DNA of 64,000 nucleotides from Hydrogenophaga sp. (GTDB taxonomy: Bacteria; Pseudomonadota; Gammaproteobacteria; Burkholderiales; Burkholderiaceae_C). Position numbers and translations under genes: made by a program. Below, in pieces: positions 7,203 to 11,476 of this stretch. The notes beneath the pieces are model-generated. The model made no database searches, was not told the origin of the DNA, and was given only the letters and a program-made list of their open reading frames with translations. Location: assembly GCA_011391495.1 (NCBI GenBank), contig JAABQK010000003.1, positions 124,001 through 188,000 of the forward strand. The letters are read 5' to 3'. The stretch's first letter is position 1. Each line of letters begins with the position of its first letter.

Positions 7203-8624
7203 TCAGGCAAATTGGCGAACATCGACGAAATGACCGTGTACGGCGGCTGCCGCAGCCATGGCCGGTGAGACGAGGTGCGTGCGACCACCCGCACCCTGGC
7301 GGCCCTCGAAGTTTCGGTTGCTGGTGGAGGCGCAGCGCTCGCCCGGTTCCAGCCGGTCGGCGTTCATCGCCAGGCACATCGAGCAACCCGGTTCGCGCCA
7401 CTCAAATCCGGCGGCCTTGAAGATTTCGTGCAGGCCTTCCCGTTCGGCCTGTTCCTTGACCAGGCCAGAACCCGGAACCACCATCGCCAGTTTGATGTTC
7501 TTGGCCACTTTCTGGCCCAGCTTTTTCACCATGGCCGCAGCTTCTCGCATGTCTTCGATGCGGCTGTTGGTGCAGGAACCGATGAACACCTTGTCGACAA
7601 AGATGTCGCCGAGCGGCTTGCCGGGTACCAGGTTCATGTAGGTCAACGCCCGCTCCATGGCACCTCGTTTGTTGGCGTCCTTTTCCTTCTCGGGGTCTGG
7701 CACGCGGGCGTCGATGCCCAGCACCATTTCGGGCGAGGTACCCCAGGTGACCTGCGGCACGATCTGTGATGCATCGAGTTCGACCACGGCGTCGAAGCGG
7801 GCATCGGCGTCCGATTGCAGGGTCTTCCAGTAGGCCACGGCCTGGTCCCACTCCACGCCGGTAGGCGAGAGGGGGCGGCCTTTGACGTATTCGATGGTCT
7901 TCTCGTCCACGGCCACCAGGCCGGCGCGCGCACCGCCTTCGATGGCCATGTTGCAGACCGTCATGCGTCCTTCCATGCTCAGGGCCCGGATCGCACTACC
8001 GCCGAACTCGATGGTGTAGCCGGTACCGCCGGCGGTGCCGATCCTGCCGATGATGGCCAGCACGATGTCTTTCGCAGTGCAACCACGCTGCAGCGTGCCA
8101 TCCACCTTCACCAGCATGTTCTTGGCCTTTTTGGCCAGCAAGGTCTGCGTCGCCATGACGTGTTCCACCTCGCTGGTGCCGATGCCGTGCGCCAGCGCGC
8201 CAAAAGCGCCGTGGGTCGAGGTGTGGCTGTCGCCGCAGACCACTGTCATGCCCGGCAGGGTGGCGCCGTTTTCGGGGCCGATGACATGCACGATGCCCTG
8301 GCGCTTGGACATGAAGGGGAAGAAGGCCGCTGAGCCGAACTCGGCGATGTTGCTGTTGAGCGTGGTGATCTGCTCTTTGCTGATCGGGTCGGTGATGCCG
8401 TCGTAGCCGCGTTCCCATCCGGTGGTGGGGGTGTTGTGGTCGGCCGTGGCCACGATCGAACTAACACGCCACACCTTGCGGCCAGCCTGGCGCAGACCTT
8501 CAAAGGCCTGCGGGCTGGTGACTTCGTGCACCAGATGACGGTCGATGTACAGTACGGCGGTGCCGTCCTCTTCGGTGTGAACGACGTGTTCGTCCCAGAT
8601 CTTGTCGTAGAGCGTGCGTCCCAT
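7203..8624 (-). CDS. leuC: 3-isopropylmalate dehydratase large subunit
   Basis: [45 protein letters not shown] matches the usual LeuC N-terminus; AGGA 5 nt before ATG at 8624. Longer ORF starts (8669, 8690) fall inside the TnpB element end. Confidence 0.93.
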
Positions 8625-8662
8625 GGATGTCCTGAGGAGGTCTTGGTAACCCGTGATTTTAG

Positions 8663-8860
8663 TTGACATCCTCTCCCCCCCCTTTGGCATTTGGCTACCG
8701 CTTGCGCGGGAAGGAGGGAGATTCCTACCGAGTCAGCCGTGCGCAGCATGGCTGATCTCCTTGGTGGGTTCCTGCTTCACCGGAGCTGCACGCCCAGCGC
8801 TTGCGCGCCGGCCGCGTCTGACGGCTCCTCCACAGGCATCGGGCGAAGGAGCTTGCTCCT
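8663..8860 (-). ncRNA. candidate omega-RNA (reRNA) scaffold overlapping tnpB 3' end; 5' limit approximate
   Basis: Minus strand ...GCCTGTGGAGGAGCCGTCAGACGCG...GTGAAGCAGGAACCCACC...GGTAGGAATCTCCCTCCTT[loop]AAGGGGGGGGAGAGGATGTCAA resembles TnpB-associated 3' RNAs as I recall them. Confidence 0.65.
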
Positions 8861-10022
8861 TTGCCCAGGCCGCGTGCCCCGCGGCCAGAATGTTCTTCGC
8901 GGCGTGAACGTCCGCGTGCTCTGTGTGGCCGCAGGCAACACAGATGAAGGCGCTTTGCGTCTTCCGGTTCTCTGCTGCCTCGTACCCGCAGACGCGGCAC
9001 GTGCGGCTGGTGTACGCCGGGTTGACCAGGATGGTCTGCCCACCGCGCCACTGCGTCTTGTACCCGAGCTGGCGCCTGAACTCGCCCCAGGCGGCATCCA
9101 GGATGCCGCGGTTGAGCCCGGCCTTCTGGCGCACCTTCTTCCCCGGCTTCTCAGCCGTGCCTTTGGCACAGCTGCTCATGTTCTTGACCTTGAGGTCTTC
9201 CAGCGCAATGACGGGGTGGCGGTCCGCCAGATCCGTCGTGAGCTTGTGCAGCCAGTCTGCTCGCTGCCTGGCGATCTTCCTGTGCAAGTTGGCCAGTCTG
9301 GCCACTGCCTTGCGGCGGTTGGCCGATCCTTTCTGCTTGCGCGAGACCGCACGCTGGTACCGGTGTAGCCGGCACTGCTGCTGGGCCATGGCCTTCAAGG
9401 GCGCCACGATCTCGCCCTGCGAGGTAGCGGCAAACACCGAGAGCCCCAGGTCGATCCCCAGCGTGGGCGCGACGCCGAGCGCTGCGATGGTCTCACCGGT
9501 TTGCACCTGAATGCTGGCGCTCCAGCGCGCCGAGGCGCCCGCGCCTTCGCGTGTGAGGCTCACGTTGCGCAGCACACCAGTGAACTCCTGGCTCATGCGC
9601 ATGCGCACCCAGCCCAGCTTGGGGAGCTGGATGCGGCCGTTGGCCACATCAAGCCTGAACTGCTTGGGGTCGGGGAACCGGATGCCCGGTTCCTTGCCCC
9701 GGCGCTTGAACGATGGGAGCCCGCCGGTCTTGGCAAAGAAGCGCTTGTACGCTTCGTCCAGGCGGCGCAGCACCTGCTGCTGCGGGTGCACCGGGCCTTC
9801 AGAGAGCCACATCGTGCCCGGCGCGTTGCGCCAGGCGGTGAGCCATTTGCACATCTCGGCGTGGCCAGCGTACCGCTCACCCCGTGCGTGGCGTGCGCGC
9901 TGCTCGGCCAGCGCCTGGTTCCAAACCCAGCGCAAGCCCCCGGCGATGTGCCGCAGCGCCGCGCCCTGCGCGGGGCGCAGGCGCAGCTGGAAGCGGTAGG
10001 CCTTGATGCTGGACACAAGCAC
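8733..10022 (-). CDS. tnpB: TnpB RNA-guided endonuclease / OrfB-type transposon protein
   Basis: RuvC motifs GIDLGLS (D), ALEDLKVKNM (E), HADVHAAKNIL (D); CxxC zinc ribbon CRVCGYEAAENRKTQSAFICVACG; N-terminal HTH_OrfB-like region. Confidence 0.93.
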   Translation of the reverse strand: MLVSSIKAYRFQLRLRPAQGAALRHIAGGLRWVWNQALAEQRARHARGERYAGHAEMCKWLTAWRNAPGTMWLSEGPVHPQQQVLRRLDEAYKRFFAKTGGLPSFKRRGKEPGIRFPDPKQFRLDVANGRIQLPKLGWVRMRMSQEFTGVLRNVSLTREGAGASARWSASIQVQTGETIAALGVAPTLGIDLGLSVFAATSQGEIVAPLKAMAQQQCRLHRYQRAVSRKQKGSANRRKAVARLANLHRKIARQRADWLHKLTTDLADRHPVIALEDLKVKNMSSCAKGTAEKPGKKVRQKAGLNRGILDAAWGEFRRQLGYKTQWRGGQTILVNPAYTSRTCRVCGYEAAENRKTQSAFICVACGHTEHADVHAAKNILAAGHAAWAKEQAPSPDACGGAVRRGRRASAGRAAPVKQEPTKEISHAAHG

Positions 10023-10086
10023 AAGCTAAAGGCGATCGGGAAAGTAGGCAAGCCCGACGGGACTTGCCGCGCATTTGGGTCAGTGC

Positions 10087-10123
10087 AAAGAAAACGCCCG
10101 CATCGCGGGCAAGCGTGCGGGCG
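10087..10123 (-). terminator. gltA rho-independent terminator
   Basis: Minus strand CGCCCGCA-cgcttgcccgcga-TGCGGGCG followed by TTTTCTTT. Confidence 0.8.
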
Positions 10124-10165: not shown

Positions 10166-11476
10166 TCAGCGCTGAGCCAGCGGCTTGACGTCGCGGCGCT
10201 CGGAGCCGGTGAACAGCTGGCGTGGACGGCCGATCTTGTACTCGGGATCGCTGATCATCTCGTTCAGCTGCGCGATCCAGCCCACGGTGCGGGCCAGCGC
10301 GAAGATGCCGGTGAACAGGTTGACCGGGATGCCGATGGCGCGCTGCACGATGCCGGAGTAGAAGTCCACGTTCGGGTACAGCTTGCGCGACACGAAATAC
10401 TCGTCTTCCAGCGCGATCTTCTCCAGCTCCTTGGCCAGTTTGAACAGCGGGTCGTTTTCGAGGCCCAGTTCCTGCAGCACTTCGTTGCAGGTTTCCTGCA
10501 TCAGCTTGGCGCGCGGGTCGTAATTCTTGTACACGCGGTGACCGAAGCCCATCAGCTTGACGCCGGAGTTCTTGTCCTTGACCTTCTCCATGAACTCGCC
10601 GACCTTGGACACACCACCCTGGCGCTGGATGTCTTCCAGCATGTTCAGGCAGGCTTCGTTGGCGCCGCCGTGGGCCGGGCCCCAGAGGCAGGCCACGCCC
10701 GCAGCGATGGCGGCGAACGGATTGGTACCCGAGGAGCCGCACAGGCGAACGGTGGAGGTGGAGGCATTCTGCTCGTGGTCGGCGTGCAGGATGAAGATGC
10801 GGTCGAGTGCGCGCTCCAGAACCGGGTTGACCTTGTACTCTTCGCACGGCGTGCCGAACATCATGCGCAGGAAGTTGCCCGAGTAGCTCAGGTCGTTGCG
10901 CGGGTACATGTAGGGCTGGCCGATGCCGTACTTGTAGGCCATGGCCACCAGAGTGGGCATCTTGGCGATCAGGCGGATCGCGGCGATACGGCGGTGTTCC
11001 GGGTTGTTGATGTCCGTGCTGTCGTGGTAGAAGGCCGACAGCGCACCGACCAGACCCGTCAGCACGGCCATCGGGTGTGCGTCACGGCGAAAGCCACGCA
11101 GGAAGAACTGCATCTGCTCGTTGACCATGGTGTGGTTGATCACGAGCTTGTGGAAGTCGCCGCGTTCCTTCTCGTTGGGCAGTTCTCCGTTGAGCAGCAG
11201 GTAGCAGGTGTCGAGGTAGTCGCAGCCTGTGGCGAGCTGCTCGATGGGGTAACCACGGTACAGCAGTTCGCCCTTGTCGCCGTCGATGTAGGTGATGGCC
11301 GACTGGCACGACGCGGTGGACAGGAAGCCGGGGTCGTAGGTGAACATGCCGGTCTGTGCGTACAGCTTGCGGATGTCGATCACGTCCGGACCGATGCTGC
11401 CGGCGTACACCGGCAGTTCGACGCTGGGGCTGCCGTTGGAGAACGACAGGGTGGCTTTGTTGTCAACGAGTTTCAT
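10166..11476 (-). CDS. gltA: citrate synthase
   Basis: [57 protein letters not shown]. Confidence 0.96.

What the first reader, a model, noticed from the sequence alone, without database searches (positions are those of the whole stretch)
8640..8860. Candidate omega-RNA whose guide position is the leuC 5'UTR
In TnpB systems the omega-RNA scaffold overlaps the tnpB 3' end and the guide is the sequence just past the right end. Here that is CTAAAATCACGGGTTACCAA (minus strand, 8662 to 8643), in the leuC leader on the sense strand. Processing of such an RNA could cut the tnpB-leuC read-through transcript just upstream of the leuC start, linking the nuclease system to leucine biosynthesis. The terminal hairpin also looks unusual: stem CTCCCTCCTT/AAGGGGGGGGAG encloses a ~27-nt insert containing CCGCGCAAGCGG, where I recall short loops in related elements.
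Basis: partly seen in the sequence, partly recalled or inferred. Interest (0 to 1): 0.72.

Follow-up and report, generated by a model that had tools for sequence, protein, structure and literature searches.

The report
TnpB element inserted in leuC promoter
A small jumping gene that carries its own RNA-guided DNA cutter has landed in the promoter of a leucine-synthesis gene, so its guide RNA is a copy of that promoter; this is how such elements normally work, and no sign was found that it controls leucine synthesis.

Summary
A 1,416-bp IS200/IS605-type element (minus strand, 10078 to 8663) carries one intact tnpB (8733-10022). A covariance model built from 20 other elements finds a full-length omega-RNA at minus 8836-8663 (E 1.8e-12, the only strong hit in the genome). 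It starts 104 nt inside tnpB and ends exactly at the right end. The next 20 nt, 8662-8643, are therefore the guide. Copies in other genomes and an empty site in a congener show that the element sits 3' of TGAC (inferred TAM), with no duplication or loss. The insertion point is 1 bp upstream of a conserved TAAAAT, the probable leuC -10 box, so the guide covers promoter plus early leader, not only 5'UTR. The expanded terminal hairpin is real but recurrent. The proposed leucine control is not supported: the arrangement occurs in 1 of 63 congeners with leuC; the guide is sense to leuC; its locus lacks a TAM; and the one TnpB tested elsewhere did not trim RNA on the guide side. Most likely it is an ordinary retention/homing nuclease programmed against the empty leuC promoter. 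Its left end has lost the conserved hairpin, so it may be stranded there.

The parts
8663..10078 (-). whole element, 1416 bp, IS200/IS605-type carrying tnpB only
   Evidence: Right boundary from relatives and five copies in G059; left boundary from relatives' left ends and from the gapless empty-site alignment to L100
10079..10082 (-). TGAC, inferred target-adjacent motif (TAM) directly 5' of the left end
   Evidence: TGAC/TGAT/TCAC/TTAC immediately precede the left end of relatives; TCAC in all five G059 copies
10023..10078 (-). left end; lacks the conserved subterminal hairpin
   Evidence: Alignment with 11 relatives: about 37 nt missing relative to L024 between two GCGCGGCAA repeats
8733..10022 (-). 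tnpB, 429 aa, GTG start; RuvC residues D191, E275, D371 and four zinc-ribbon cysteines present
   Evidence: Pfam OrfB_IS605, Cas12f1-like_TNB, HTH_OrfB_IS605; NCBIfam guided_TnpB; alignment to ISDra2 TnpB 8h1j; motif positions
8663..8836 (-). omega-RNA scaffold, 174 nt, of which 104 nt lie inside tnpB
   Evidence: cmsearch with R1: E 1.8e-12, full length; unique in the genome; covariation
8672..8721 (-). terminal (right-end) hairpin with a 26-nt insert at 8710-8685, probably containing CCGC-GCAA-GCGG as a small inner hairpin
   Evidence: the branched form recurs in L005, L007, L021, G816, G240
8643..8662 (-). guide: first 20 nt of host DNA past the right end, CTAAAATCACGGGTTACCAA
   Evidence: Position fixed by the right-end boundary; the rule that flanking DNA supplies the guide is from PMC8612924
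8656..8661 (-). TAAAAT, probable -10 box of leuC, guide nucleotides 2-7
   Evidence: TAAAAT 29-59 nt before leuC in 27 of 30 genus loci read, the window's own among them; 0.12 expected from shuffles
7203..8624 (-). leuC (3-isopropylmalate dehydratase large subunit), start ATG 8624-8622
   Evidence: ORF list; start as in congeners; name from sequence and the leuC-leuD-leuB order, own knowledge
10094..10116 (-). gltA terminator hairpin, upstream of the element
   Evidence: terminator scan; conserved in empty-site relatives
10166..11476 (-). gltA (citrate synthase), left neighbour
   Evidence: ORF list, start codon chosen by own reading; same neighbour in the empty-site relatives

Best explanation
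This is a tnpB-only IS200/IS605-family element that transposed into TGAC|CTAAAAT, one base upstream of the leuC -10 box, without duplicating the target. Its tnpB mRNA ends in an omega-RNA that runs past the right end and takes its guide from the leuC promoter and leader. The TnpB-omega-RNA complex should cut DNA bearing TGAC next to CTAAAATCACGGGTTACCAA, that is, the empty leuC promoter left by excision or brought in on an allele without the element, so that repair from the occupied copy keeps or spreads the element. The occupied locus is spared because TCAA, not TGAC, precedes the guide match. The link to leuC is a by-product of where the element landed: the insertion separates the -10 box from its upstream sequence and puts leuC downstream of tnpB with no terminator between. 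Shown by sequence: boundaries, intact catalytic residues, omega-RNA structure, TAM position, empty site. Inferred from the family: RNA-guided cutting and retention. Inferred from sequence only: the -10 box and read-through.
For: Independent covariance-model hit at exactly 8836-8663, unique in the genome. Compensatory changes in 17 of 31 pairs (66 cells against 21 in shuffles) and in the 5' helices that overlap tnpB coding sequence (22 cells against 5.7). Right end fixed by five copies in one genome. TAM position from the left ends of relatives. Gapless empty-site alignment through the junction with L100. Intact D/E/D and zinc ribbon. Guide-from-flank rule and donor-joint cutting model for ISDra2 (PMC8612924); gene-drive use by this family on plasmids (PMC11870625 abstract).
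Against: No expression or cleavage data. The left end lacks the conserved hairpin, so the element may no longer excise and its retention role may be idle. The genome carries one Y1 transposase domain, unlinked. No empty allele with both TGAC and the exact guide was found: the closest, L100, has AGCA and three mismatches in 20 nt.
Confidence: 0.87

Rival explanations
1. One reading: omega-RNA maturation cuts the tnpB-leuC read-through transcript and thereby sets LeuC levels, a real regulatory link to leucine synthesis.
For: Same orientation, leuC ATG 38 nt past the right end, no terminator between tnpB and leuC, insertion directly upstream of the probable leuC -10 box.
Against: One genome of 63 congeners with the leuC locus. 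AmaTnpB does not process RNA on the 3' side. TnpB 5' processing would fall at or inside the tnpB 3' end, not upstream of leuC. About half of the elements that land upstream of a gene will by chance read towards it.
Confidence: 0.05
2. The element acts on leuC only in cis as an insertion: it destroys the native promoter, and leuC is now driven by read-through or by a promoter in the element. TnpB and the guide are irrelevant to it. (Compatible with the best explanation; concerns the effect on leuC only.)
For: The insertion lies 1 bp upstream of TAAAAT and replaces everything 5' of it; no sigma-70-type promoter in the element by consensus, so read-through from upstream of the scan's reach or a non-consensus promoter would be needed.
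Against: The native promoter also has no recognisable -35 in relatives (sequence reading), so the -10 box may still work.
Confidence: 0.35
3. Dead relic: an element that lost its left-end hairpin, with tnpB and the omega-RNA not yet decayed and no current role.
For: Left-end deletion between short repeats, single copy, no transposase in the element and one unlinked Y1 domain in the genome.
Against: tnpB is full length with all catalytic residues, and the omega-RNA still fits the model end to end.
Confidence: 0.3
4. A TldR-like repressor: a domesticated TnpB that uses its promoter-matching guide to silence promoters.
For: The guide is promoter sequence, and its near-matches in the genome look like other promoters.
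Against: RuvC residues are intact, whereas TldRs are nuclease-dead (PMC13418256). None of the near-matches read is preceded by TGAC. There is no conserved gene partner.
Confidence: 0.02

Closest known systems
ISDra2 TnpB and its reRNA (Deinococcus radiodurans; PMC8612924, structures 8h1j and 8bf8)
   Same: Domain order and RuvC residues; RNA from the 3' end of tnpB plus right end plus flank-derived guide; insertion 3' of a TAM without duplication; right end TCAA as far as I recall
   Different: Inferred TAM TGAC instead of TTGAT; different omega-RNA; RuvC-III reads HADVH, near the NADxN form of the 'Derived' TnpBs; no adjacent tnpA
AmaTnpB (Alicyclobacillus macrosporangiidus; PMC10278001)
   Same: 4-nt TAM of closely similar form (TCAC); omega-RNA with a 3' hairpin next to the guide
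   Different: Its processed scaffold is shorter (106 nt); its RNA processing and cleavage were tested in vitro, whereas nothing has been tested for this element
Betaproteobacterial tnpB elements L019, L020 (70% protein identity), L024 (87%, truncated), G059 copies (58%), G816 and G240 branched-hairpin copies
   Same: Same right-end motif GTAGGAATC-hairpin-GGATGTCAA where the right end is in reach, same omega-RNA model, TNAY-type TAM
   Different: Those aligned keep the left-end hairpin and sit at unrelated loci; most have a plain terminal loop
TldR, TnpB-like nuclease-dead repressors (PMC13418256)
   Same: A guide that matches a promoter
   Different: TldRs lack the nuclease and keep conserved gene partners; here the nuclease is intact and the locus is unique

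Membership tests
IS200/IS605-superfamily TnpB (RNA-guided nuclease) | OrfB/RuvC-like domain, TNB zinc ribbon, N-terminal HTH | tested here: met
   Pfam PF01385, PF07282, PF12323 over cut-off; NF040570 guided_TnpB 285.7 bits, cut-off 100
IS200/IS605-superfamily TnpB (RNA-guided nuclease) | Catalytic D/E/D of RuvC | tested here: met
   D191, E275, D371 align to the RuvC motifs of 8h1j
IS200/IS605-superfamily TnpB (RNA-guided nuclease) | Omega-RNA spanning the tnpB 3' end and right end, with a hairpin within about 10 nt of the guide | tested here: met
   Model hit 8836-8663; hairpin ends 9 nt before the guide; the feature is described in PMC10278001
IS200/IS605-superfamily TnpB (RNA-guided nuclease) | Insertion 3' of a short TAM, no target duplication | tested here: met
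   TGAC, gapless empty site
IS200/IS605-superfamily TnpB (RNA-guided nuclease) | RNA-guided cutting of TAM-bearing DNA | not testable with these tools
   needs a biochemical or plasmid-interference assay
Mobile IS200/IS605 element | Subterminal hairpins at both ends | tested here: not met
   Right end present; conserved left-end hairpin absent, only a smaller one remains. It derives from such an element but may no longer be mobile
Mobile IS200/IS605 element | Y1 transposase tnpA in the element or acting in trans | tested here: inconclusive
   No tnpA in the element; one unlinked Y1_Tnp domain in the genome, which is 86% complete
TldR repressor | Inactivated RuvC | tested here: not met
TldR repressor | Guide targeting a TAM-flanked host promoter | tested here: not met
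   The guide resembles promoters, but none of the near-matches read carries TGAC

The most novel reading that the evidence does not exclude
An immobilised but still active TnpB, with its guide fixed on the leuC promoter, has become a chromosomal homing system for one housekeeping locus: it cuts incoming leuC alleles without the element, while leuC expression now depends on the tnpB/omega-RNA transcript.
Probability: 0.06. Interest if true: 0.7.

Novelty: new member of a known kind. Interest (0 to 1): 0.3.

Why it matters
The locus is a clean worked case of how a TnpB element acquires its guide from its landing site: exact ends, TAM, empty site and omega-RNA can all be read. It shows that a guide can consist of a host promoter, here the -10 box, without the element being a promoter regulator. 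It also documents a recurrent branched form of the terminal omega-RNA hairpin and a left-end deletion that may strand an intact nuclease. If the stranded nuclease proved active, it would be a handle on how TnpBs become domesticated.

Tried and rejected
Rfam, gathering and permissive thresholds: no family. A conserved tnpB-leuC pairing: none in 67 congeners. A promoter-silencing role: intact RuvC and no TAM at the near-matching promoters read. Hairpin unique to this locus: rejected. A terminator between tnpB and leuC: none found. Folding energy as proof of the RNA: too weak alone (z = -2.3), so covariation and the independent model were used. MAFFT misaligned the window's terminal hairpin in A1, so A1 was scored only on its 5' helices and the hairpins were compared separately. 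A literature search for promoter-linked TnpB found TldR work; nothing on read-through into host genes appeared in the hits listed. An LeuC start inside the right end (ATG 8690 or 8670, in frame) was considered but not pursued.

Full report
WHAT IS THERE. The window lies in a 3.23-Mb, 68-contig, 86%-complete genome. On the minus strand the order is gltA (10166-11476), its terminator (10116-10094), tnpB (8733-10022), leuC (7203-8624), leuD and leuB. TnpB is 429 aa and belongs to the RNA-guided TnpB family. Its RuvC residues D191, E275 and D371 and its zinc-ribbon cysteines are intact. The RuvC-III motif HADVH is close to the NADxN form that PMC10278001 uses to define 'Derived' TnpBs. It is the only copy in the genome.

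ENDS OF THE ELEMENT. Relatives were fetched from 250 genomes of the family and from a genome collection. Their right ends share GTAGGAATC-hairpin-GGATGTCAA and then diverge. Five copies at different places in one genome (G059) differ from the first bases after TCAA. On the left, relatives share C....GCGCGGCAAG preceded by TGAC, TGAT, TCAC or TTAC; in the window TGAC occupies 10082-10079. Joining the two window flanks gives an alignment with the congener L100 that has no gap through the junction (TTTGCACTGAC|CTAAAATCACGGG against TTTGCACAGCA|CTAAAATCATGGG). The element is therefore 10078-8663, 1,416 bp, inserted 3' of TGAC without duplication or loss.

THE OMEGA-RNA. Thirty-nine right ends were compared. 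Two alignments, one of 20 elements without the window (A2) and one of 13 close relatives with it (A1), support a common structure: a closing stem CCUG/CAGG, a variable inner arm, the arm ACCGAAGCG...CGCCGUAGG, and the terminal hairpin. In A2, 92.6% of cells pair, 17 of 31 pairs show changes on both sides, and 66 such cells compare with 21 in shuffles; no shuffle reached the observed value. In A1 the helices that overlap tnpB coding sequence show 22 such cells against 5.7. A covariance model built from A2 finds the window at 8836-8663 minus, full length, E 1.8e-12, with no other strong hit in the genome, and it finds the other complete relatives too. The tool warns that relatedness inflates these counts; with the partner strand slid by 1-3 columns only 35-49% of cells pair.

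THE TERMINAL HAIRPIN. Thirty-five of 39 right ends have a short loop. The window, L005, L007 and L021 carry an insert of roughly 25-30 nt that folds into one or two small hairpins, usually CCGC-GCAA-GCGG followed by a second. A pattern search of 400 family genomes found it in four: the window, G053 (the L007 element), G240 (2 copies) and G816 (5 copies). Several copies in one genome mean that elements with this form have spread. Some of these copies lie next to a tnpB and for others none was seen in reach.

WHAT THE GUIDE IS. Nucleotides 2-7 of the guide are TAAAAT. TAAAAT lies 29-59 nt upstream of leuC in 27 of 30 genus loci read (the window's own included), against 0.12 expected from shuffles, so it is the probable -10 box. 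The -35 is not recognisable. Eight other places in the genome match the first 16 guide nucleotides with up to 3 mismatches. Seven were read; most lie shortly before a start codon, and none follows TGAC. The start of the guide therefore resembles the ordinary -10 region of this organism, which explains those partial matches without any targeting.

IS THERE A LINK TO LEUCINE SYNTHESIS? Sixty-three of 67 congeners, the window's genome among them, have the leuC locus. The 29 others whose leuC upstream region was read show no element there, and in the remaining genomes every tnpB relative found lies on another contig or far from leuC. Tested AmaTnpB makes only the 5' end of its omega-RNA and leaves a 59-nt 3' extension untouched. 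Cleavage upstream of leuC by TnpB is therefore not expected; a host RNase could still trim there. The guide has the sequence of the leuC mRNA and cannot pair with it. No terminator is predicted between tnpB and leuC, so read-through is possible. The likely consequence for leuC is that of any insertion in a promoter.

MOST LIKELY MECHANISM. In the ISDra2 model TnpB cuts the donor joint, TAM plus flank, left after excision, so that repair restores the element (PMC8612924). A related study reports TnpB of this family acting as a gene drive between plasmids (PMC11870625, abstract). Here the matching target would be TGAC-CTAAAATCACGGGTTACC, the empty leuC promoter of this species; no such allele was found in the genomes searched.

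A COMPLICATION. The window's left end lacks the hairpin seen in the 11 relatives aligned. About 37 nt are missing compared with L024, between two GCGCGGCAA repeats; a smaller hairpin remains. If this is not an assembly collapse, the element may be unable to excise and its nuclease may be stranded. That leaves room for decay or, less likely, for a new role.

LIMITS. The genome is incomplete, only one genome of the species is available, nothing is known about expression, and the TAM and -10 box are inferred.

Noticed in passing
window 10023-10078 (minus): Left end has lost the conserved subterminal hairpin through a deletion of about 37 nt between GCGCGGCAA repeats (compared with L024); the element may be immobile. 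An assembly collapse is not excluded.
   Followed up: partly
window 8690 and 8670 (minus): Two ATGs in the right end are in frame with leuC and could give an N-terminally extended LeuC ([27 protein letters not shown]); related right ends also carry GGAGGATG.
   Followed up: no
G816 (L173, L175, L177-L179), G240 (L174, L176): Several copies per genome of right ends with the branched terminal hairpin, some with a tnpB nearby and some where none was seen in reach.
   Followed up: partly
G405, G512, G481 (L129-L131): Genomes with 11 to 34 copies of the same right-end motif, a possible resource for TAM and guide statistics.
   Followed up: no
L161-L167: Near-matches of the guide in the window's genome lie mostly just upstream of start codons; CTAAAATC-CGG looks like the usual -10 region of this organism.
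   Followed up: yes
L005, L012, L015, L017, L019, L020, L024 (left-end side): Hairpins on the left-end side of several relatives resemble the right-end hairpin and give weak, mostly partial hits with the omega-RNA model.
   Followed up: no
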